A stretch of 64,000 bases of DNA from Spirosoma validum (GTDB lineage: Bacteria; Bacteroidota; Bacteroidia; Cytophagales; Spirosomataceae). The stretch lies in the NCBI RefSeq assembly GCF_014699035.1, contig NZ_JACXAA010000003.1, forward strand, positions 186,001 to 250,000, given 5' to 3'. Both the position numbers and the translations under genes were made by a program. This document shows, piece after piece, positions 19,619 to 30,238 of the stretch (the first letter of the stretch is position 1; every line of letters begins with the position of its first letter). The notes beneath the pieces were generated by a model that was given only the letters and a program-made list of their open reading frames with translations, searched no databases and was not told where the DNA came from.

Positions 19619-22018
19619 ATGATGAGGAAAGCCAGCGGTTATCATCAAGTAGCCTTAAAGATTATCCTGGTATTGCTTGTTTTGCGAACTATATCCGCGC
19701 AGGCCGATCATATCATTGGCGGAGATGTAAGCATGCGCGCTATTGGAACAACACCCGGTCTGTTCCGCTTGCAGCTAAACCAGTATTGGGATGCTACAAA
19801 AACCAGTACTGCTAACCAGGATCGCTCGGTAAGATTGCTGATCTATCGCAAACAGAATCCAATACTCGTTGATAGCGTTACGTTGCTTTTACGGGAAACA
19901 CTACCCCTTACATTTGATAACGCGGCTTGTGCAAAGCTACGTCAGCTAAGCTTTGTGCAAGCATTATATTATGATACGCACCAATTTGATTCCAGGCAGT
20001 TCACCGATCCGGGGGGGTACTATATTGTGTGGGAAAGGTGCTGCCGGAACAGTGCGCTGACGAACGTAGATGCAGCTGCAACGGCCGGGGTAGCCATGAC
20101 ATTTTATCTGGAATTTCCTCCCATGATTAAAAATGGGACAAACTTCAAAAACTCGGCCCCTGATTTCCGCTTACCTAATGGCAGTTACATTTGTATCGAT
20201 AAGCCATTCACGTTTAACGCCGATGCCACCGACGCTGATGGTGACCAACTGCGCTATTCTCTGGTAACACCCCTGAATGGATACACCAGTCGTTCAAACC
20301 CAGTCAGCACAAACCTCGCTCCCCAGACTAATTACCCTGCTGTTATGTGGGCACCAGGGTATAGCCTTACCAACATTATTCCGGGAAATCCAGCACTAAC
20401 AATTAATCAGGGTACTGGGCAACTAAGCGTCCGCGCTTCTCAGGAGGGTTTATTTTTGTTTACGGTGCAATGCGAAGAATTCCGGAATGGCGTACGTATC
20501 GGTGTGGTCCGGCGTGATTTTCAACTGCCTGTCGTTGACTGTTCGAAAAATACCCCACCTCCTGCTGTTGTTGTAGCTAACGGGAAAGTAGCGACTGAAT
20601 TGACCTTGTGCAAAAGCCAGCCGTTAATACTCAGTGTTGAAAAGAATTCGATATGGGCCTATCAATGGCAGAAAGACGGAACAAACCTGCGTGGTTCAAC
20701 GGCTGATACGCTACAAGTTAGTGAGTCCGGGGTATACACGGTCATTAAAAGTCAAGCGAGTGTATGTGCCAATGACACCATATCGCAGGCGATAAAGGTG
20801 ACACTGCTGGAAACCCGATCTGTCAGTCTCTCACTAACCGCAAAGCCTTACTGTACAGGTGATACTGTCACTATACAAGCAGAAGGGACCCCCGACACTC
20901 AGTTTCGATGGCGCAGGAATGGAACTGAACTAGTAGGGGAGCGGTGGTCTTCAATACGTACTACGCAATCGGGTTCATACAGCGTATTTATAACTTCCGC
21001 GTCATCCGTTTGCAATGGGCAGGATAGTGTTAATGTAGTCATTAATACTCTACCAGCTGTTCGGCTTAACGCATCGGCGCTGGTATTTTGTCCAGGTGCA
21101 ACCGTTCAACTAATTGCCAACAGTAATCAGAGCGGTTCCCGATACGTCTGGCAAACAAATAACGCCAGATTAACGGACACGACCAGCCGCATCGACGCAA
21201 AGCAGGCAGGAACGTATCAGGTAACTGTAGCAGCACCATCGGGTTGTACAGCTATATCCGACAAATTAACCCTTACCCAGTACAGTACGCCTGCTGTACA
21301 ACTGGATTCCATTGCGCCAGTATGTGGTACGGGCGGCCCCATTGTGCCACTCAGTGGACAACCGGCGGGCGGCACCTTCTCGGGGGACGGGGTGCAGGGT
21401 AATCAGTTCAATCCGGTAACGGCAGGGGTGGGTCAGCACAAACTAATCTATACCATCATCTCGGATAAGGGATGCCAGGTTACCCAAAGCCGTTCTGTTA
21501 CTGTGTCATCTGGACCGACAATAACTGGGCAGACTACTTACGGTATCATGAAAGGCAACAGCGTGCAGCTAATTACCCAGACTAACGAGCCTGTTCGTCA
21601 GTATTTCTGGGAACCGCCTGCATCGCTGTCACAAACCAATGTGGCTAGCCCAGTGGCTACGCCAACAGTGACAACCAGTTATCAGCTAACTGCCGTTGGT
21701 CAGATAGGGTGTCCATCAACATTTACTACGGTGGTCGAAGTAACGGAACCACTCTACATTCCATCGGCATTTTCGCCGAACGCCGATGGCGTAAACGATT
21801 CATGGGTGATCCCGAATATCAGTGCTTTTCCCAAATGCGAAGTGTCGATTTTTAACCGCTGGGGCGAACTGGTATTTTATTCAAGGGGCTATTCGCAACC
21901 CTGGGATGGCACCTATCAGCAGACTTTCGCTCCGATGGGCAGTTATACGTATCAGATTCAAACGGGAGCTGTTGCTCAACCTTTCACGTATCGGGGCCAG
22001 CTGAGTGTTATTCGGTAA
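19619..22018 (+). CDS. T9SS-secreted adhesin-like protein with CHU_C domain
   Basis: A 799-residue secreted protein with a signal peptide (hydrophobic about 12-27, cleavage near AQA-D). After an N-terminal region with GGDVSMRA and paired cysteines come several Ig/PKD-like units (about 310-700) with repeated VxxxGxYxV strands. The last about 90 residues are the gliding-motility-associated CHU_C domain: PSAFSPNADGVNDSW, then FNRWGELVF and WDGTY...GSYTY. This domain is a type B sorting signal for the type IX secretion system, so the protein should cross the outer membrane and stay on the surface or be released. The ligand is unknown. Confidence 0.85.
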   Translation: MMRKASGYHQVALKIILVLLVLRTISAQADHIIGGDVSMRAIGTTPGLFRLQLNQYWDATKTSTANQDRSVRLLIYRKQNPILVDSVTLLLRETLPLTFDNAACAKLRQLSFVQALYYDTHQFDSRQFTDPGGYYIVWERCCRNSALTNVDAAATAGVAMTFYLEFPPMIKNGTNFKNSAPDFRLPNGSYICIDKPFTFNADATDADGDQLRYSLVTPLNGYTSRSNPVSTNLAPQTNYPAVMWAPGYSLTNIIPGNPALTINQGTGQLSVRASQEGLFLFTVQCEEFRNGVRIGVVRRDFQLPVVDCSKNTPPPAVVVANGKVATELTLCKSQPLILSVEKNSIWAYQWQKDGTNLRGSTADTLQVSESGVYTVIKSQASVCANDTISQAIKVTLLETRSVSLSLTAKPYCTGDTVTIQAEGTPDTQFRWRRNGTELVGERWSSIRTTQSGSYSVFITSASSVCNGQDSVNVVINTLPAVRLNASALVFCPGATVQLIANSNQSGSRYVWQTNNARLTDTTSRIDAKQAGTYQVTVAAPSGCTAISDKLTLTQYSTPAVQLDSIAPVCGTGGPIVPLSGQPAGGTFSGDGVQGNQFNPVTAGVGQHKLIYTIISDKGCQVTQSRSVTVSSGPTITGQTTYGIMKGNSVQLITQTNEPVRQYFWEPPASLSQTNVASPVATPTVTTSYQLTAVGQIGCPSTFTTVVEVTEPLYIPSAFSPNADGVNDSWVIPNISAFPKCEVSIFNRWGELVFYSRGYSQPWDGTYQQTFAPMGSYTYQIQTGAVAQPFTYRGQLSVIR

Positions 22019-22077: not shown

Positions 22078-23607
22078 TCATTGTCGCCAGTACGGCATCT
22101 CGGCTGAGCTAAATAGCAGTTTACGGGTGATTCCTCCCTGTACCTGCCGATTGATTTCGACCGAGTAAACAGATCGCGTTTCAGTGCCTGTATTGTCGGT
22201 ATTCGTAAAAATGATTTGCGCACCGTTCGGCGAAAAGCGAGGTTCTAAATCATTCGTACCCGATGGTTTATTCTGGTTGTTCGAATTCTGGGAGGTCTGG
22301 TAAGACGACAAGTTGACCAGGCGATTTGTTGTCAGATCGAGCAGGTAGATCCGGGCATCGAGCTGGCGACCCTGCTCGTTCATAAAGCCACTTGAGTCTG
22401 CGGAAAAAGTCAGCTGTCGGCCATCGACCGAGAAAACAGGATTTCCAACCCGGTTCGTTTTCTGGCTGTAGACTATTTTGTAGTCGGACCCATCGGCCTG
22501 CGAGGTTGCCAGTTCATTATCGTAGATGCTGGTGCCTGTGGTGCGGGTAACGATTCGATTTCCTTGGGGCGTCCAGTCGCAACCGGCAAACACGCGTCCG
22601 GAGGGAGCCTGAGATACGACCCGCAGGCCTGTTCCGTCAGTGCGCACAGTAAATAGCCGATCATTGTTCGGGTACAATAAGTAAGTGCCATCCGGTGACC
22701 AGCTAAACGACAAGTCGGTCGGGTAGAGCCCGGCGATCGGAACTGTCGTGACCTGTCGCTTGTTGCTGCCATCCGAATTCATCACGAACAAATGCAGATC
22801 AGTATTGACGTTGGAGATATAAGCGATCTGCTGTTTGTTCGGGCTGACGATCGGACGCCAGTTACTGCCTTCGCTCGTAAACTGGGCTGCATTACCTGTG
22901 GCGTTCGACGCAAATATTTGATACCGTCCGTTTATTCTTCGGGCGAACAGGTAGCTGTAGTCAGGATAAGCCCCCGTAGCAAACGACCAGATAGACCCAT
23001 TCACGGTATTCACACCGTCTTTCACGATCACCTGCCATAAATAGGTTGTGTTGTATTCCAGATTCGATACAACCAGCGTATCAACTTTCAGTCCCGTATA
23101 CGATGAAGTAGGCGTAGAGACGCCGGACTTGTACAGCAATACATCATACGTTAAACTATCGCGGTTGGGGTCTGTCGCTTTCCATTTAAGCGTCAGCGTC
23201 GTCGATTGCGTAGAGCTGTTGAGACCTGGTGAAACAAGAGTGGGTGCCGTAGGAGGACGATTCTGTGATTTATCGTCGCTGAGCTGAATCGTGATCAGAG
23301 GAGACGCATCCGCCGTAGCCGAAACTGTGGCGACCTGTGTTACGTAGCCTGTTTTAGAAGCTTGGAGGGTGTAACTCCCCACCAGTACGCTGTCGAACCG
23401 AAAGTTACCGGACGAATCCGTACTGACGACCCGGCTGGTGGGCGAAAGGGTGACCTGTGCATTTCGGGCAGGCTGTTGATTGGCATTATAGACCACCCGA
23501 CCCCGCACGTTGGTGTATTGAACAGGGTCTACGTATATGTCTTCATTACAACCCCAAAGGACCAGCAGTCCAACAAAAAACAGGGATAGATAGTGTAGCG
23601 ATTTCAT
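22078..23607 (-). CDS. TolB-like propeller lipoprotein linked to csgG
   Basis: I start at the ATG whose first base is 23607, giving MKSLHYLSLFFVGLLVLWGC, a lipoprotein signal with a cysteine at residue 20; an upstream start would bury it. The 509-residue protein has a carboxypeptidase-regulatory-like domain (about 30-105), an Fn3-like domain (about 115-205) and a C-terminal six-bladed TolB/PD40-type propeller with repeats such as FSWSPDGTYLLY, WTPQGNRIV and FSPNGAQIIF. It follows csgG by 34 bases on the same strand, so it is probably an accessory of the curli system at the outer membrane, but no known curli protein has this layout. Confidence 0.7.
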   Translation of the reverse strand: MKSLHYLSLFFVGLLVLWGCNEDIYVDPVQYTNVRGRVVYNANQQPARNAQVTLSPTSRVVSTDSSGNFRFDSVLVGSYTLQASKTGYVTQVATVSATADASPLITIQLSDDKSQNRPPTAPTLVSPGLNSSTQSTTLTLKWKATDPNRDSLTYDVLLYKSGVSTPTSSYTGLKVDTLVVSNLEYNTTYLWQVIVKDGVNTVNGSIWSFATGAYPDYSYLFARRINGRYQIFASNATGNAAQFTSEGSNWRPIVSPNKQQIAYISNVNTDLHLFVMNSDGSNKRQVTTVPIAGLYPTDLSFSWSPDGTYLLYPNNDRLFTVRTDGTGLRVVSQAPSGRVFAGCDWTPQGNRIVTRTTGTSIYDNELATSQADGSDYKIVYSQKTNRVGNPVFSVDGRQLTFSADSSGFMNEQGRQLDARIYLLDLTTNRLVNLSSYQTSQNSNNQNKPSGTNDLEPRFSPNGAQIIFTNTDNTGTETRSVYSVEINRQVQGGITRKLLFSSAEMPYWRQ

Positions 23608-23641
23608 TGGAATCATGACTTTATGAGCTTGATGCAAACGA

Positions 23642-25072
23642 TTATTTTTTGGGAGCGGCCACGGGCTTAGTGACTACGGGGCGGTTTTTGGCTGGGAAAC
23701 GACCGACATGGATGACCAGGCCAAACGTACCGCGCAAATAATAATCGTTGCGGGTGCCAGCTACTCTACCGTCTAAAGCATCGGTAAAAGGCTGGTTGTA
23801 CGACAGGGTAGACCGAAAACCGATCACTTTACTGGCTGAGAACTGAATGCCTGCCCCTGCCTGTGCCTGTAGATAGCTGGCCCCCTGCAAATCGAGCGCT
23901 GAAGAGCCTGCGCGTGATACAACCCCCGCACCGGCGTAGAGTAGGGGAGTCCAACGCTGATAAGGCATCATTCGAAAAATCAGGTTTCCTTCAAGGGAGG
24001 TGATGTTGGCAGAAAAAGCACCTTCACTGGCCAGTGTTCCGGTAGCGGCATTGAGCTGAATCCCAACAACAGGCGTAATGTGAAAATCCAGCGACGCTCC
24101 ATAAGCACCCTTGTATGTACGGCGGGCATAATCGCCATAATAGCGCATGATACCCGTGTAAGCAGAAAGCGTCAGGAAGGGGGGAGCTACTTCCGGGCGC
24201 ACGCCAAATACATCGGTTTCGCTCATGACGGCTTTGTCTTTGTCATAAGCGTCAATCACAGTTTTCATGGCGCCCATCGATTTATCGGCTGCTGACCAGA
24301 GACCGTCTTTGGTGCCTTCGATGATGAGTCCTTCAACAGCTTTCTCGATGGCTTCCGTAACCGCCATCTGGCCCGGCTCGGTCGTCGTGAATCCGGTCTC
24401 GGTTTCGAGTAGCCGTTTGAAACTGACGTACCGAAAAAGGGTAGCGTTAACTGTTTGTGACAGGATGGTCTTGGAGGTGTATATCGTTTTCAGAATCTTA
24501 CCCGACTTAGTCGATACGGCTCGCAGGTAAACAGTCACCCGGTCCTGACGGTACTGCGTGGCTGCGCCAGCTCCGAAATACTGCAGACCAGCGCCCCCCG
24601 TAATAACGTTCGCATCGTATGATACGACCCCACCCTCAAGGATAATCCCGGCGAAGAGCAGCGGAGGAAGGTTTTCGCCCTCTTTAAACTGGGCTACGCT
24701 CGAGCGAACGATTTTCCGTTCGTTGAGCAGATTACTGATGTTCTCCCGTTCAATGGCCACGAACCAGCCGCTTTCTTCGAGGGCTTTCAGCAAAATATTC
24801 GTAGTACCCTGGGTTACGGCTGTGGAGAAAGTTGATCCAGATTCGATCTGTTTGTATTGACCTGTGAGGTCACGAAACTTATAGACAGCAGCTACGATTT
24901 TTTCCTTGACAGGGGGTAGCTGGTGCAGGGTTGTCGTGCTTGGTGTTTCTTCACCCAGACGGGCCCGACGAGCTTTTGTTGGCTGATGAAAATAAGCCGT
25001 ACAGCCCGATAACAATCCAATTAAGCTGCTCAGGATAAGTGCCTGAACCGCTCTGGCCAGATAGCTTTGCAT
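23642..25072 (-). CDS. csgG: CsgG curli secretion channel with C-terminal beta-barrel-like extension
   Basis: The start at 25072 gives MQSYLARAVQALILSSLIGLLSGC, a lipoprotein signal; a longer reading would overlap csgF and hide it. The 476-residue protein begins with a CsgG domain (about 25-270): VAAVYKFRDLTGQYK, STAVTQGTTNILLKALEES, FVAIERENISNLLNERKI and the constriction/hairpin region GGVVSYDANVITGGAG. E. coli CsgG has 277 residues and forms a nonameric outer-membrane pore. Here about 180 more residues follow (about 285-465), with alternating strands typical of a small outer-membrane beta-barrel: GASLDFHITPVVGIQL, TPLLYAGAGVVS, YLQAQAGAGIQF. Neighbours csgF and csgE support the call. Confidence 0.9.
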   Translation of the reverse strand: MQSYLARAVQALILSSLIGLLSGCTAYFHQPTKARRARLGEETPSTTTLHQLPPVKEKIVAAVYKFRDLTGQYKQIESGSTFSTAVTQGTTNILLKALEESGWFVAIERENISNLLNERKIVRSSVAQFKEGENLPPLLFAGIILEGGVVSYDANVITGGAGLQYFGAGAATQYRQDRVTVYLRAVSTKSGKILKTIYTSKTILSQTVNATLFRYVSFKRLLETETGFTTTEPGQMAVTEAIEKAVEGLIIEGTKDGLWSAADKSMGAMKTVIDAYDKDKAVMSETDVFGVRPEVAPPFLTLSAYTGIMRYYGDYARRTYKGAYGASLDFHITPVVGIQLNAATGTLASEGAFSANITSLEGNLIFRMMPYQRWTPLLYAGAGVVSRAGSSALDLQGASYLQAQAGAGIQFSASKVIGFRSTLSYNQPFTDALDGRVAGTRNDYYLRGTFGLVIHVGRFPAKNRPVVTKPVAAPKK

Positions 25073-25136: not shown

Positions 25137-25559
25137 TCAGAAGTAAGGAATGGTAACGGACGTTTCTCCTCCTTTTCCATCAACAATCCGAACGATTACG
25201 CCTGCTGCATCATTGGAAATATCGACCTGAAAATCACCGAATTTGTACGTGCCGGGCTGTAGGGTTGTTTCGCCAAACTGCTTGTTTATCAAACTGCTTG
25301 TGATTCGACTAAGTAGCTGGCTCTGAAGGCTCTGAGCAAAATTATTCAGCGTATTATTGCTGGATGAGGACGAAGTCGTCGTTCGTCTGGTTGACGGATC
25401 AACGTTTCGGTCCTGCGCCTGCGCCTGGCTAAGCATCCAGGAATAATTAAATGTGTTACCCCCGAAATTAGGATTGTTCGGGTGGTAGACAAACGCCTGA
25501 GCCAGTGCGCAGACCGGCACACTAATCAGGAGAAGAAAAGAAAGGACAAGTTGTTTCAT
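25137..25559 (-). CDS. csgF: Curli assembly protein CsgF
   Basis: A 140-residue exported protein. A signal peptide ends near CALAQAF, and the mature part starts FVYHPNNPNFGGNTFNY, the CsgF N-terminal segment that plugs into the CsgG pore in E. coli. A serine-rich linker (about 62-70) and a short strand-rich C-terminal domain ending VTIPYF follow. CsgF couples secretion to nucleation at the cell surface. It lies between csgE (30 bases upstream) and csgG (64 bases downstream). Confidence 0.93.
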   Translation of the reverse strand: MKQLVLSFLLLISVPVCALAQAFVYHPNNPNFGGNTFNYSWMLSQAQAQDRNVDPSTRRTTTSSSSSNNTLNNFAQSLQSQLLSRITSSLINKQFGETTLQPGTYKFGDFQVDISNDAAGVIVRIVDGKGGETSVTIPYF

Positions 25560-25589: not shown

Positions 25590-26111
25590 TCAGAACATGC
25601 CGCTGCCACGCTGATCTTCACTTTCAAGTGAGCGTTGCACTTCCTGATAATTCAATACATATTGATTGATTGTTTCAGCCGCATTATTGGCATACAGTTC
25701 AAGAATTTCCTGTCGTATCTGAACGTAGTTTTGCCAGATCAGCTGGTCGTTCAATGACACAGATATGATGCTGGTGCCAACGCCGAACGCGGGTAGTTCG
25801 TCGATAGTAACGATGAACGCATTGAGATCCAACTCAAGGTTTGGCGTTATTTTCTGAGCTGTATCAGCGGCTGCAACTGGTCCGACAGCCTTGGGTAATT
25901 CGGCATAATGCCTGAAGAACGCTTCGTAAAAATCACGACCAATTTTCGATCGGGTATTATCCAGCAATAAGGTTTCTGTTCCTTCTTCAGTGATCACAGC
26001 CTCATTCATGGTCTCCTCGATGAGCTTCCCATCAAGCTCAGGGTCCTGGGCGTAGCAAACAGACGTAAAGCTTAGTAAAAAACTGAAAAAAATGTAGCGT
26101 AACGAATGCAT
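25590..26111 (-). CDS. csgE: Curli assembly chaperone CsgE
   Basis: A 173-residue protein with a signal peptide (about 1-21, ending CYAQ). The mature part has the CsgE pattern: a leader, EGTETLLLDNTRSKIGRDFYEAFF, ITPNLELDLNAFIVTIDELPAFGVGTSIISVSLND and a long C-terminal helix. CsgE forms the periplasmic cap of CsgG and brings curlins to it. It is longer than the E. coli protein (129 residues). It begins two bases after the stop of the CsgB-like gene, so translation is probably coupled. Confidence 0.9.
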   Translation of the reverse strand: MHSLRYIFFSFLLSFTSVCYAQDPELDGKLIEETMNEAVITEEGTETLLLDNTRSKIGRDFYEAFFRHYAELPKAVGPVAAADTAQKITPNLELDLNAFIVTIDELPAFGVGTSIISVSLNDQLIWQNYVQIRQEILELYANNAAETINQYVLNYQEVQRSLESEDQRGSGMF

Positions 26112-26113
26112 GA

Positions 26114-26707
26114 TTAATTGCCAATAACTTTTCCCTGCTGTATGGTAATGGATGCTCCCCCCGTCTGTTCGATGTGCAGATTCGGAATACCACTCCCCTG
26201 AAACAGGTTTGTATTGTCGAGGGTCAGTGAGTTGTTCCCGTATCCCTGTTTTACTTCAAGGCGTTCGTTATTTTTCTGGAGGCCCTGCATCTGAATCCGA
26301 TCGCCCCCATCCTGCGCTAATACGTACTGATTGTTACTGCCGTTCAGCCCGAATGAGATCGAATTTCCGGTACCTGTCTGGTTAAGAAGCACGCTGTTAT
26401 TGACTCCGGTCAAGGTTGCATCTACAAAATTCAGGCCTGTATACTGATTGACCTCTAGTCGATTTTGCGCACCAGACAAGACCGACAGCATCGCCGTATT
26501 GGCGCCACCTTCCTGCCGGGTGACAACTTCATTTTGCGAAGAGGCCGCAGGAAGACTGGCCGTACTCAAGCGTAGTGTAGCTTGTGTCTGGGTCGGAATT
26601 GTCGGTAAATTCCAGTAGGCATCCAGCGTACCACCTGTTACCAGATTGGTCTGAGCTTCAGCAAATAAACTAAAAAAGCAGAAGACAACTAGAAGGTGGC
26701 GGCTCAT
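26114..26707 (-). CDS. CsgB-like minor curlin
   Basis: A 197-residue exported protein (signal peptide about 1-18). It contains imperfect curlin-like strands such as NSVLLNQTGTGNSISF, NNQYVLAQDG, NERLEVKQGYGNNSL and the terminal IEQTGGASITIQQGKVIGN. The repeats are more divergent than in the four curlins upstream. In E. coli the divergent curlin CsgB nucleates the fibre and stays attached through CsgF, and by position (directly before csgEFG) this gene is the best candidate for that job. I leave the symbol empty because the nucleator role is not proven by sequence. Confidence 0.72.
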   Translation of the reverse strand: MSRHLLVVFCFFSLFAEAQTNLVTGGTLDAYWNLPTIPTQTQATLRLSTASLPAASSQNEVVTRQEGGANTAMLSVLSGAQNRLEVNQYTGLNFVDATLTGVNNSVLLNQTGTGNSISFGLNGSNNQYVLAQDGGDRIQMQGLQKNNERLEVKQGYGNNSLTLDNTNLFQGSGIPNLHIEQTGGASITIQQGKVIGN

Positions 26708-26839
26708 AACGATGAGGCATATTTTTTAGACTATAAAGATAATAAATATTAGAAATCATAAGAAAAAAATAGAACGATCGAATGAAATAATCTTCCGGTA
26801 AGAACTACGCTTATTTATTGATTACGGTATAAACAACTA

Positions 26840-26887
26840 TTTTCCATGACCAGTTGTCCGAGTTCAGACTAAGCGGGTCATGGAAAA
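26840..26887 (-). terminator. Hairpin between curlin gene and csgB-like gene
   Basis: TTTTCCATGACC (26840-26851) pairs with GGTCATGGAAAA (26876-26887) over a 24-base loop, downstream of the 131-residue curlin gene. It may partly terminate transcription and lower csgEFG relative to the curlins. Confidence 0.55.
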
Positions 26888-26919
26888 ACTAACAAGTCAG
26901 TTTATTTAGCTAATTCGTT

Positions 26920-27315
26920 CTACTCTTTCGGCTTTTTTCGATCCACCTTCTTTTTCCGATCAGTTACGTTGCCGCTGGATTGATAGACACTGATGGAGTT
27001 GCCATCTTTTGTCTGATTGATGATCGTTTCGCCTTCGCCTGACTGAGTCGCGTTGACTGAATTCTGGGAATCGGTCGTGTTGGTATCGGCATTTCCCTGA
27101 TTGATGGTAGCGACATTGCCCGAGCCTGACTGAACGACCGATACGTGGTTTGAAGGACGAGCACTTGCCTGATTGATAACCGACGTATTGCTGGCCCCCT
27201 GCTGAATAACAGAAACTTCATGAGGGCCGCCTTGTTGATTGATTACAACTGAATTTTGTGCTAGAGCCGTTGTGCCGCTCAATGCAGCTAGGCCGAGAAA
27301 GATAATACGTTTCAT
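26920..27315 (-). CDS. Curlin-repeat protein with basic tail
   Basis: A 131-residue exported protein. After the signal peptide (ending TALAQNS) come about four curlin repeats of the form NxVxVxQxGxxN, for example NSVVINQQGGPHEVSVIQ and NHVSVVQSGSGNVATINQ. The protein then ends with a strikingly basic segment, TDRKKKVDRKKPKE, unlike normal curlins. A TACTTTTG box in its upstream region may give it its own promoter. It could be a major subunit, a nucleator or a terminator of the fibre; the tail might bind acidic surface glycan. Confidence 0.82.
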   Translation of the reverse strand: MKRIIFLGLAALSGTTALAQNSVVINQQGGPHEVSVIQQGASNTSVINQASARPSNHVSVVQSGSGNVATINQGNADTNTTDSQNSVNATQSGEGETIINQTKDGNSISVYQSSGNVTDRKKKVDRKKPKE

Positions 27316-27344
27316 GATTATTGTTTGTTGTTATGGTTAAAAAG

Positions 27345-27352
27345 CAAAAGTA
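27345..27352 (-). promoter_or_regulatory. Candidate -7 box for the 131-residue curlin gene
   Basis: The complement reads TACTTTTG, matching TAnnTTTG, 29 bases before the start codon at 27315. No TTG lies 19 bases upstream, so the promoter would be weak or activator dependent. Confidence 0.4.
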
Positions 27353-27356
27353 TGCT

Positions 27357-28979
27357 TTAATTACTCGACTGGTTGATCATCAGCATGTTACCAGACCCAG
27401 CCTGGATTACATGCGCTGCGTTCCCGGTTCCGGTCTGACTAATATACAACTTATTATCGGACCCTATCTGTCGGGCCATTGTATCCGCATTCAGTCCGGC
27501 AACAATATTTCCATTTCCTGATTGGTTGATCATGGCCATGTTATTCGCGCCGATCTGCTGATTCCGGCTGATGTTGTTCAGCTTCTCCTGTATGACCGAT
27601 GTGATATTCCCGCTCGACAAACCGTCTTCATAAGACCCCTGGAATACTTCCGCCAGATTATTACCATTCCCTCCGCCGAAACTGTTCTGATTCTGCACAA
27701 TGCTGGTCTGACTGGCTGTGCTCCGGGTCTGACGGATCAGTGCTGTATTTGCCGAGCCCGCCGGATACTGATCGACGTAAGCGTTGCTGTTGCTGACCGA
27801 TAGCGTCTGATAAATCTGGGCATTATGTCCATCACCAGACTGCCCAATACGGGCTATGTTATCGTGACTATTGATGCTTTGGTCAATAACCGCTGTGCCG
27901 TTGTTGACGGGTATCCAGCCATTTGGGTATTGCCCTGTCGGGCCGTCGCCCCCCATGTTGATCGTTGCCGTATTGTTATTGGAGCTTTGAAGCTGGCTAA
28001 TTCGGGTTTCTTTATTGTTATTTCCGTATTGATTTAAATACGCTTTGTTATTAGAGCTGAAATAGTTTTGTAAGATGCTGGTAATTAAATTGTTGTTACC
28101 CTGCTGATATAGAGTAGCCGTGTTGCCAACCGCGCTTCCGCCACTGGTACTTTGCTGTTCGATCGTTCCTTTGTTGTTGTTTCCATGTTGCGTGAGAGTC
28201 GCTTTATTTTCTGATGATGTGTAGCTCTGTTCGATCTTAGCCTGAGAGTTAGTGCCCTGTTGACTGATGGTGGCTGTGTTGTAGGAACTGGAACTACGCT
28301 GCCAAATCTCAGCAGTGTTACCATGGCTGGACTGGTCGATCTGAGCATCATTGAAAAAGCTTTGTTTTTCTTGAGCAATGGCCGCTCTATTATCCGAAAC
28401 GGCATTGTTCAAAGAGCCCTGTCGGATCTGTGCGTTGTTGCCTTCCGCTTCTTTGCTTTGGCTGATGCTTGTCTCCCTGTTGCCGGTACCGTATTGATCT
28501 ATAGAACCGTAATTGCCACTGCTGTAAATCTGCTGATCGATTACAGAAGCATTACCCGCGCCCTGTTGGAAAATAGTGCCGTAGTTTCCTGTTCCTACTA
28601 TGCCTAAACCCGGCGACGTACTGCGAAAAGTCGTTCCTCCGCTGTTGCTCGCCTGATTGATAGCGGCCGAGTTAGCTAGAGATGCTAAAGGGCCGCCCCC
28701 TTTCTGGACAATAGTTGCTTGATTATAAGCCGACCCATAATCCTGAAGAACGTTGGCAATCTGATAGCTACCCGATTGGTCTGTCTGCATCTGATTGTTT
28801 TTGTTACGTATATTATTGGGGTTACTGCCCTGCGTAACTGTAGATATTAGATTCGCACCAGACTGACTTTGATGGCTGGTCTGGTTAGTACCAACCTGAT
28901 TAAGCGTAGCGGTATTCTGCGCATAACTCTCGGCCACAAAAACCAACAAGGCGAAAGCAGTAAGAACCTTTTTTTTCAT
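27357..28979 (-). CDS. Large curlin-repeat protein, 540 residues
   Basis: A signal peptide (ending ESYAQ) precedes some 500 residues made of about 20 or more curlin repeats, each two strands with the pattern NxAxIxQxGxxN, for example NTATLYQQGNNN and NKATLTQHGNNN. E. coli CsgA has five repeats. The product should be exported through CsgG and fold as a very long beta-solenoid amyloid subunit. Some repeats are broken by inserts (GGDGPTGQYPNGWIPVN). The end shares a module (GLxxD, QIGxxNxLxISQ) with the 253-residue curlin. Asn, Gln, Ser and Gly dominate. Confidence 0.88.
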   Translation of the reverse strand: MKKKVLTAFALLVFVAESYAQNTATLNQVGTNQTSHQSQSGANLISTVTQGSNPNNIRNKNNQMQTDQSGSYQIANVLQDYGSAYNQATIVQKGGGPLASLANSAAINQASNSGGTTFRSTSPGLGIVGTGNYGTIFQQGAGNASVIDQQIYSSGNYGSIDQYGTGNRETSISQSKEAEGNNAQIRQGSLNNAVSDNRAAIAQEKQSFFNDAQIDQSSHGNTAEIWQRSSSSYNTATISQQGTNSQAKIEQSYTSSENKATLTQHGNNNKGTIEQQSTSGGSAVGNTATLYQQGNNNLITSILQNYFSSNNKAYLNQYGNNNKETRISQLQSSNNNTATINMGGDGPTGQYPNGWIPVNNGTAVIDQSINSHDNIARIGQSGDGHNAQIYQTLSVSNSNAYVDQYPAGSANTALIRQTRSTASQTSIVQNQNSFGGGNGNNLAEVFQGSYEDGLSSGNITSVIQEKLNNISRNQQIGANNMAMINQSGNGNIVAGLNADTMARQIGSDNKLYISQTGTGNAAHVIQAGSGNMLMINQSSN

Positions 28980-29056
28980 GATAGGGAGACTATAAACTAA
29001 ATATAAAGGCCGCTAAATCCTTCAGACTGCTTACTGACACTGTTTCGATTTGTTGC

Positions 29057-29281
29057 TTAAATGACTTGGTGAGAATCCTGTTGAAAGGCGCCGTTTTGTG
29101 TGGTCGTGCTTTTATGCTCTGTGCCAGACTGGTCTATAGTAGCTTGTTTCGACTGGCCAATCTGCGAGCTTGATGAGTTGTTATTGTTCCCATTTTGATT
29201 CAAAGTCGCGTTGTTATTTTGAGCGAAACTGCTTGTAGCAACAGCAATCGCTGCTATACCGGTGAGGATTATACGTTTCAT
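29057..29281 (-). CDS. Mini-curlin, 74 residues
   Basis: A signal peptide (MKRIILTGIAAIAVATSSFAQ) is followed by only about 53 residues with two to three curlin strands: NNATLNQNGNNN, SKQATIDQSGTEH and STTTQNGAFQQ. This is too short for a stable solenoid by itself. It may be a capping, nucleating or inhibitory subunit, or a decayed copy; the reading frame is intact with a normal start. It lies 77 bases upstream of the 540-residue curlin gene. Confidence 0.75.
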   Translation of the reverse strand: MKRIILTGIAAIAVATSSFAQNNNATLNQNGNNNNSSSSQIGQSKQATIDQSGTEHKSTTTQNGAFQQDSHQVI

Positions 29282-29410
29282 GGCAAAGTTTGGAGAAAGC
29301 AGCGATCTGCTGCAAAAGGAGAGGATAAGGAACCAAACGCTGTACCCAGGAAGAGCAGTAAGTTAAACCAAAGCCTTTAGCTACGTTTACGCTGACCAGG
29401 GGGCCAGTTA

Positions 29411-29447
29411 CTTTAAAAGAGTACCCGTAAAGAGTACCCTTTTAAAG
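29411..29447 (-). terminator. Hairpin after the 253-residue curlin gene
   Basis: CTTTAAAAGAGTAC (29411-29424) pairs with GTACCCTTTTAAAG (29434-29447), 14 base pairs with one G-T wobble. It lies 30 bases downstream of the first curlin stop codon. No long T run follows leftwards, so it may stabilise the mRNA end or attenuate rather than fully terminate. Confidence 0.55.
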
Positions 29448-29476
29448 CGAATTATAGCAAAAGCAAGTATTTCTAA

Positions 29477-30238
29477 TTAGGGAGCAACACTGCCTTGTGT
29501 GATTTTGCCGACGTTACCCGTACCATTCTGACCTACCGAAGCCGTGTTAAAATTACTGTTCTGGCTAATCATGAGGCTGTTAGACGTGCCGATCTGAGTA
29601 GCGATGTCGCCACTCAACCCTTTGATTACGTTGTTGTTGCCAATTTGAGAGAGGTCAGCAGTATTCAGAACGCCTGTCTGCCCAAGCTTAGCTGTATTCA
29701 AATTGCCTTTCTGCGTAATGGTAGCCGTGTTCCCATCGCCAGTAGTCGCATCACCCTGCTTAATATATGCTACGTTTTTTTCACCGGTTTGAGTAAATGT
29801 AGCATACGTGCCTCCCTGACCGCTAACGTTATCGGCCTGGTCGAGTGTTGCTTCGTTGCTCGTACCGTTTTGGGTGAAGTTAGCCGTAGCCGCCGACCCG
29901 CTGTAGCTCGCCTGCTCAGACGTGATCTTGTTTGACGTTCCCGTTTGAGTCGAGTAAGCGTACGAACTTCCCTGTAATTTCTGAGTAAAGCTGGCCGAGT
30001 TCGTTGTTCCGGACTGCGTAGACTGCAGGTAATTACCAGATCCTATCTGGCTAGAGGTCAGGATATTACTACCCGCTCCAGACGAACCGTTGTTTTGTGT
30101 AACTAAGGCCTGGTTTTGGCCAGCTTGTTTTATTGTTGCTTGTTGGCTATTTCCAGATTGATCGAGCGTAGCTTGGTTTTGAGCAAAAGTAGTGCTGATT
30201 GCACAAGCGATAGCGAGGGAAAGAAATACTTTTTTCAT
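29477..30238 (-). CDS. Curlin-repeat protein, 253 residues
   Basis: A signal peptide (ending STTFAQNQ) is followed by about ten curlin repeats such as NQATLDQSGNSQQATIKQAG, NEATLDQADN, NTATITQKGNLNTAKLGQTG and NTADLSQIGNNN. The repeats are regular, so this is a good candidate for the main fibre subunit (CsgA-like). It ends with the same GLxxD...QIGxxNxLxISQ module as the 540-residue protein. It is the first gene after the consensus promoter at 30903-30932 and is followed by a hairpin, which would favour high expression over the later genes. Confidence 0.88.
   Translation of the reverse strand: MKKVFLSLAIACAISTTFAQNQATLDQSGNSQQATIKQAGQNQALVTQNNGSSGAGSNILTSSQIGSGNYLQSTQSGTTNSASFTQKLQGSSYAYSTQTGTSNKITSEQASYSGSAATANFTQNGTSNEATLDQADNVSGQGGTYATFTQTGEKNVAYIKQGDATTGDGNTATITQKGNLNTAKLGQTGVLNTADLSQIGNNNVIKGLSGDIATQIGTSNSLMISQNSNFNTASVGQNGTGNVGKITQGSVAP

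What the first reader, a model, noticed from the sequence alone, without database searches (positions are those of the whole stretch)
23642..25072. CsgG fused to a C-terminal outer-membrane barrel-like domain
E. coli CsgG ends near residue 277. Here about 180 residues more follow, with alternating strands and glycine-aromatic patterns of an eight-stranded barrel. The CsgG C-terminus should face the periplasm, so the position of nine such domains around a nonameric pore is a puzzle. They might form a second ring, anchor the pore or gate it.
Basis: partly seen in the sequence, partly recalled or inferred. Interest (0 to 1): 0.75.

Follow-up and report, generated by a model that had tools for sequence, protein, structure and literature searches.

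The report
Curli pore carrying fused membrane barrel
The protein that exports curli fibres in this bacterium carries an extra, small membrane-barrel domain that E. coli's version lacks, so its nine-part pore may be ringed by nine small anchors in the outer membrane.

Summary
Window 23642-25072 encodes a 476-aa CsgG in an intact curli operon. Its core aligns with E. coli CsgG, gap-free through both pore hairpins. E. coli CsgG stops where this protein has about 190 further residues. These hold a ~165-residue domain related to small outer-membrane barrels: OMP_b-brl matches 49 of 59 rows at E up to 1, and profile alignment to PorG, the T9SS barrel, scores 101.6 against at most 21.8 in controls. 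In a draw of 395 Bacteroidota genomes, all 41 with a strong CsgF have core and barrel in one frame; 0 of 11 curli-type CsgG frames from green-sulfur-type genomes do. So it is no frame artefact, and a soluble sandwich is unlikely. Best reading: each subunit is a lipoprotein pore subunit plus a BAM-type barrel with both termini in the periplasm; a nonamer would be a 36-stranded pore with nine satellite barrels, which fit geometrically. I found no description in nine paper searches. New variant of a known kind.

The parts
23642..25072 (-). csgG with fused C-terminal barrel, 476 aa plus stop
   Evidence: PF03783 E 2.2e-60; same architecture in 41 of 41 strong-CsgF genomes
25001..25072 (-). lipoprotein signal peptide ending in LSGC; Cys24 (invariant in the 59 rows of A1, whose starts were chosen to include a lipobox-like Cys) is the predicted lipidated residue
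24290..24916 (-). CsgG core (residues 53-261); both transmembrane hairpins (positions recalled from the E. coli structure) align gap-free with E. coli CsgG
24194..24277 (-). linker (residues 266-293): first part matches the last helix of E. coli CsgG, then a conserved TDxYG stretch
23696..24193 (-). OmpX/PorG-type barrel domain (residues 294-459); strands by inference: 299-312, 321-332, 336-347, 357-369, 375-386, 398-411, 416-429, 443-456
   Evidence: strand limits are my reading of the profile
23738..23782 (-). loop between strands 7 and 8 (residues 431-445) with the D-x-x-D-G...G...ND-x-Y motif (G439, D443 invariant; D431, D434 nearly so)
   Evidence: a like motif in PorG rows
23645..23695 (-). 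Pro/Lys-rich C-terminal tail (residues 460-476), variable in the family
25137..25559 (-). csgF
   Evidence: PF10614 E 6.9e-43
25590..26111 (-). csgE
   Evidence: PF10627 E 3.6e-11
26114..30238 (-). four curlin-repeat genes (26114-26707, 26920-27315, 27357-28979, 29477-30238)
   Evidence: PF07012 in all four, weakest 21.9 bits against a cut-off of 20.7
22078..23637 (-). downstream lipoprotein-like gene (carboxypeptidase-regulatory-like domain plus PD40 propeller), probably the next gene of the operon
   Evidence: homologue directly downstream of csgG in 9 of 18 loci examined

Best explanation
This is the curli export pore subunit CsgG with an extra, probably eight-stranded, outer-membrane barrel at its C-terminus. 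Shown by sequence: CsgG core with lipobox and both pore hairpins, intact curli operon, and a C-terminal domain homologous to the T9SS barrel PorG and other small barrels. Inferred: the lipid and the four pore strands assemble the nonameric 36-stranded channel as in E. coli; a linker of about 30 residues leads from the periplasmic domain to the barrel, which is folded into the outer membrane by BAM with both termini in the periplasm and its four longer loops outside. Nine such barrels would stand as a ring of satellites around the pore. Their most likely job is to anchor and brace the pore in the membrane (a protein collar), which would also make this CsgG a BAM client, unlike the E. coli protein.
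For: PF03783 E 2.2e-60 and PDB CsgG E 1.8e-55 over residues 10-265; hairpins gap-free. OMP_b-brl in 49 of 59 extension rows at E up to 1, best 7.1e-10; NCBIfam PorG in 35 of 59 full-length rows at E up to 0.1, best 1.8e-11; PDB profile hits OprF 1.2e-4, Ail/OmpX 0.002-0.006, OmpA 0.011. hhalign to 22 PorG rows: probability 98.5, score 101.6 over 137 columns; controls: reversed 21.8, best of 60 column shuffles 18.8, CsgG core 21.6; ten distant rows alone 55.9. In the own genome the best non-self hit of the barrel profile is PorG, E 3.9e-6 (PorG place). F. johnsoniae PorG is described as a predicted 8-stranded protein with a periplasmic C-tail (PMC12635249, passages). The larger insertions fall in the strand 3/4 and 5/6 loops. 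41 of 41 strong-CsgF genomes have core and barrel in one frame; a barrel profile built from 32 same-family rows finds all 41 at full-sequence E 1.5e-10 or better. E. coli CsgG assembly does not need BamA: title of Dunstan 2015, seen only in a reference list.
Against: No structure prediction was possible, so strand number, insertion and ring are not tested. The window's own domain is a weak match alone: OMP_b-brl E 0.027, below the curated cut-off, and no PorG match at E up to 0.1. The lipobox Cys is kept in 59 of 59 rows, so anchoring may be redundant. E. coli and green-sulfur-type genomes do without the barrel. Where the E. coli C-terminus lies relative to the membrane I know only from memory.
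Confidence: 0.6

Rival explanations
1. The barrel is chiefly an assembly device: it hands each CsgG subunit to BAM, so that pores are inserted at BAM sites, and has no structural role afterwards.
For: Barrels of this kind are BAM clients in general (recalled); BAM depletion lowers many outer-membrane proteins in F. johnsoniae (PMC12611786, passages); E. coli CsgG is reported as BamA-independent (title only).
Against: The loop between strands 7 and 8 carries invariant residues (G439, D443), more than an assembly tag needs; but PorG has a like motif, so it may be structural.
Confidence: 0.2
2. The barrel docks the curli pore onto the T9SS or gliding machinery, as PorG does.
For: PorG is the nearest relative found; 41 of 41 barrel-CsgG genomes carry SprA, and no family-f18 genome (the barrel-less curli genomes) is among the 303 SprA-positive ones.
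Against: PorG is tied to PorK/GldK through Cys in its C-tail (PMC12635249, passages); only 13 of 59 CsgG extensions hold any Cys and none is conserved. SprA is in 303 of 395 genomes drawn and f18 is one clade, so the co-occurrence carries little information.
Confidence: 0.08
3. The extension is a soluble beta-sandwich or lipocalin-like barrel in the periplasm, for example gating the vestibule with CsgE.
For: Soluble fatty-acid-binding proteins appear in the profile search, but only at E 0.6 or worse.
Against: The best hits in PDB, Pfam and NCBIfam are membrane barrels; alternating hydrophobicity is very strong; the last strand looks like a barrel end strand (G at 451 in 57 of 59, hydrophobic or aromatic at both +3 and +5 in 51 of 59).
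Confidence: 0.06
4. The extra strands join the pore wall and widen the 36-stranded barrel.
For: None found; only the strand number would allow it.
Against: Both pore hairpins align gap-free with E. coli; the domain is homologous to closed self-contained barrels.
Confidence: 0.02
5. The fusion is a sequencing or annotation artefact.
For: None found.
Against: 41 of 41 genomes in one frame; named plasmid copies in Spirosoma, Hymenobacter and Salinibacter cover 89-94% of the protein.
Confidence: 0.01

Closest known systems
CsgG of E. coli (PDB 4UV3, 3X2R, 6L7A, 6LQH; type VIII secretion)
   Same: Same core, both transmembrane hairpins, lipobox and csgE/csgF neighbours
   Different: E. coli CsgG stops at 277 aa with no barrel; the constriction loop differs: the Tyr51 position is Ser or Thr in 46 of 59 rows, with a one-residue insertion; the Phe56 position is Phe, Trp or Tyr in all 59 (residue roles recalled)
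PorG (NF052316), type IX secretion barrel
   Same: Homologous barrel with a like D-x-x-D-G...ND-x-Y loop
   Different: PorG is a separate protein tied to PorK/GldK by a Cys in its tail (PMC12635249, passages); here the barrel is fused to a pore subunit, without a conserved Cys
OMP_b-brl PF13505, OmpX, OprF, OmpA N-domain
   Same: Small barrel profile
   Different: Normally free-standing or fused to a peptidoglycan-binding domain (recalled), not to an oligomeric secretion pore
CsgG of green sulfur bacteria (family f18; FMO protein in 9 of 10 f18 genomes tested)
   Same: Loci with curlin-repeat or CsgF-like genes, the same core and the linker helix
   Different: A short charged tail in place of the barrel in 11 of 11 frames

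Membership tests
CsgG (PF03783, curli pore) | Score above the curated Pfam cut-off | tested here: met
   204 bits against 20.8
CsgG (PF03783, curli pore) | Lipobox Cys | tested here: met
   Cys24, invariant in the 59 rows of A1 (starts chosen to include a lipobox-like Cys)
CsgG (PF03783, curli pore) | Two transmembrane hairpins | tested here: met
   Gap-free alignment with E. coli CsgG over both (positions recalled)
CsgG (PF03783, curli pore) | csgE, csgF and curlin genes alongside | tested here: met
CsgG (PF03783, curli pore) | NCBIfam equivalog cut-off for CsgG (PRK15184) | tested here: not met
   204.9 bits against 505: same family, not that equivalog group
CsgG (PF03783, curli pore) | Nonameric 36-stranded pore | not testable with these tools
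   Structure prediction off
PorG (NF052316) | Curated cut-off of 130 bits | tested here: not met
   35 of 59 rows match at E up to 0.1, best 1.8e-11; the window protein itself does not. The best PorG of each of 39 genomes reach 5.6e-41 to 6.4e-61. A relative, not a member
PorG (NF052316) | Cys in the periplasmic C-tail | tested here: not met
   13 of 59 extensions hold any Cys, none conserved
OMP_b-brl (PF13505) | Profile match above the cut-off | tested here: inconclusive
   Window domain 15.1 bits against 28.7; 49 of 59 rows match at E up to 1, best 7.1e-10
OMP_b-brl (PF13505) | Inserted in the outer membrane | not testable with these tools
   Needs an experiment

The most novel reading that the evidence does not exclude
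Bacteroidota curli pores are compound outer-membrane machines: a 36-stranded channel encircled by nine BAM-built PorG-type barrels (36 + 72 strands), whose outer loops form a surface collar that positions CsgF and the growing fibre. One barrel module would then serve two secretion systems of the phylum: tied by disulfide to the T9SS ring, and by gene fusion to the curli ring.
Probability: 0.4. Interest if true: 0.85.

Novelty: new variant of a known kind. Interest (0 to 1): 0.6.

Why it matters
CsgG is a structural textbook case and a widely used nanopore scaffold (recalled). If most Bacteroidota curli systems build it with a fused barrel, the E. coli structure is not the general design, and a pore reported as BamA-independent in E. 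coli (title only) may be a BAM client elsewhere. It also links curli export to the T9SS barrel PorG. A large nanopore survey removed residues beyond the reference ends before prediction (PMC13397529, passage), a procedure that would remove this domain.

Tried and rejected
Fifteen short PF03783 frames of family f18 (open frames 244-338 aa) looked like barrel-less orthologues; they are distant (phmmer 3e-6 to 1e-3 against the window core), and no csgE, csgF or curlin hit at E 0.01 lay in the 15 loci fetched, some of which are short. I first guessed that f18 was Prevotella-like (that guess stands in the notebook); kinship outside the class and the FMO test point to green sulfur bacteria. T9SS co-occurrence was tested and is uninformative. 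The tree of cores does not settle whether the green sulfur form lost the barrel or never had it: long forms need 2 changes and are one side of a branch in 22% of 200 bootstrap trees. A separate barrel gene near the short csgG was sought in the 11 loci, several with short flanks: one hit (E 5.2e-8) about 4 kb away in one locus, L126. Rows dropped: 9 of 67 frames from A1 (the window's own duplicate, near copies or truncated ends); 8 of 30 PorG loci from A3 because the script took a wrong frame or a late start. In one search two more weak CsgF hits (G439, G234, E 5e-4, in 594- and 1451-aa frames) were set aside as chance. One search printed 'no csgG' for all 15 loci because its filter was too strict; one search showed the hits. 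In one search the last comparison (near rows alone) crashed and was not repeated.

Full report
What is there. The finding's coordinates enclose one complete gene on the minus strand. The 476-aa product begins with a lipoprotein signal (LSGC, Cys24), followed by the CsgG domain at residues 53-261 (PF03783, E 2.2e-60). Upstream on the same strand lie csgF (E 6.9e-43), csgE (E 3.6e-11) and four genes with curlin repeats. The genome is a Spirosoma relative: Spirosoma fluviale is among the closest named loci, 79% identical.

The core is ordinary CsgG. The best PDB match is E. coli CsgG (E 1.8e-55 over residues 10-265). Both membrane hairpins (positions recalled) align without a gap; the last E. coli helix aligns to about residue 278, and 7 more E. 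coli residues follow. One difference lies in the constriction: the position of E. coli Tyr51 is Ser or Thr in 46 of 59 rows, there is a one-residue insertion, and the aromatic at position 56 is kept (Phe 29, Trp 26, Tyr 4).

The extension is a barrel domain. In the window protein alone the evidence is weak: no Pfam hit above a cut-off, OMP_b-brl at E 0.027 when the domain is scanned by itself, and no PorG match at E up to 0.1. The relatives carry the case. Of 59 extension rows, 49 match OMP_b-brl at E up to 1 (best 7.1e-10), and 35 of the 59 full-length rows match the T9SS PorG model at E up to 0.1 (best 1.8e-11). A profile of the extension finds OprF (1.2e-4), Ail and OmpX (0.002-0.006) and OmpA (0.011) in the PDB; the first hits that are not membrane barrels come at 0.13 and 0.28, and soluble fatty-acid-binding proteins at 0.6 or worse. 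Profile-profile alignment with 22 PorG sequences gives probability 98.5 and score 101.6 over 137 columns. Controls: reversed alignment 21.8, best of 60 column shuffles 18.8, CsgG core against PorG 21.6; ten distant rows alone give 55.9. In the own genome PorG is the best non-self hit (E 3.9e-6). The domain alternates hydrophobic and polar residues far beyond chance (0.924 against 0.550 +- 0.069, 0 of 2000 shuffles). I read eight strands from that profile, with three short turns (332-336, 370-374, 411-416) and four longer loops; the larger insertions inside the domain (5, 4 and 12 columns) fall in the loops after strands 3 and 5. A motif D-x-x-D-G...G...ND-x-Y between strands 7 and 8 has a like counterpart in PorG. 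F. johnsoniae PorG is described as a predicted 8-stranded outer-membrane protein with a periplasmic C-tail (PMC12635249, passages seen).

How general it is. In 395 Bacteroidota genomes, 50 have a CsgF match. 41 of these are strong (E 2e-29 or better), and all 41 carry core and barrel in one open frame. That profile contains many of these rows; a profile of 32 same-family rows only also finds all 41, at full-sequence E 1.5e-10 or better. Seven weaker CsgF hits are in family f18, which is green sulfur bacteria by its FMO protein (9 of 10 f18 genomes tested, 0 of 7 others; that FMO marks them is recalled); two further weak hits look like chance. The 11 curli-type f18 csgG frames examined (10 genomes) lack the barrel, keep the linker helix and end in a short charged tail. 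Within the window's family, 150 genomes gave 37 strong CsgG places, all with open frames of 455-550 aa. Among 48 plasmid records with a match, 7 cover at least 80% of the protein, and they are Spirosoma, Hymenobacter and Salinibacter. In the other 33 of the 40 listed rows, all Proteobacteria, the match ends at residue 318 or earlier; 8 records were not listed, and the end of a match is not proof of the end of a protein.

How it probably works. A barrel with an even number of strands that starts in the periplasm also ends there, so a C-terminal barrel on CsgG is topologically simple. That makes a satellite ring possible, not shown. Because the lipidation Cys is kept in all 59 rows, simple tethering looks redundant; bracing of the ring, BAM-guided assembly or a surface collar remain. 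I rank bracing first. A T9SS role is unlikely: the Cys by which PorG is tied to its ring has no conserved counterpart, and SprA is in 303 of 395 genomes, with no f18 genome among the positives, so its presence in 41 of 41 barrel-CsgG genomes says little.

Novelty. Nine paper searches were made. The exact pairing of CsgG, Bacteroidetes, curli and C-terminal extension gives no paper. CsgG with PorG returns one paper, which has CsgG only in a reference title. Broad searches list only part of their hits (20 of 1,062, 15 of 546), and PMC5445135, listed with one mention of CsgG, was not opened. The 2012 curli survey reports Bacteroidetes curli systems; it never uses 'C-terminal', and says that the size of CsgG is unaffected by the size of CsgA (PMC3521004, passages). 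NanoporeDB collected 3,608 CsgG proteins but removed residues beyond the reference ends before prediction; its supplementary figures on trimming I could not see, so the domain may be visible there (PMC13397529, passages). Annotators call the plasmid copies 'CsgG/HfaB family protein'. Subscription journals, preprints and supplements were out of reach, so earlier notice remains possible.

Limits. No structure prediction or fold search was available. Strand limits, insertion, stoichiometry and function are inferred. The order of gain and loss is open.

Noticed in passing
window 22078-23637 (minus): A lipoprotein-like protein with a carboxypeptidase-regulatory-like domain and a PD40 propeller follows csgG directly. 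Of 18 loci examined, a full-length homologue is directly downstream in 9 (7 Spirosoma/Siphonobacter/Fibrella-type, L139, L140), a shorter relative (frames of 221-260 aa) lies in 6 more (L132-L137), none was found in L138, and L064 and L068 end too early. A possible unnamed curli component of Bacteroidota.
   Followed up: partly
P0001 residues 70-83 (window 24824-24865, minus): The pore constriction loop differs from E. coli: the Tyr51 position is replaced and one residue inserted, while an aromatic is kept at position 56.
   Followed up: partly
L121-L131: Green-sulfur-type genomes carry curli loci with very divergent CsgF (E 2e-6 to 4e-4 where found) and a barrel-less CsgG with a charged tail.
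   Followed up: partly
L101-L115: The same family has CsgG-like frames (open frames 244-338 aa) with no csgE, csgF or curlin hit in the fetched stretch; function unknown.
   Followed up: no
G000:C11:756352-756885 (L002): A second, divergent CsgG-family domain (E 2.6e-18) in a 601-aa frame; similar long frames occur in several relatives.
   Followed up: no
G000:C33:735232-735828: Beside porG lies a PorG-like gene (330-aa frame, E 1.4e-27), also adjacent in many relatives.
   Followed up: no
window 19619-22018 (plus): 799-aa protein with Ig-like domains and a CHU_C T9SS sorting domain, on the opposite strand to the curli operon.
   Followed up: no
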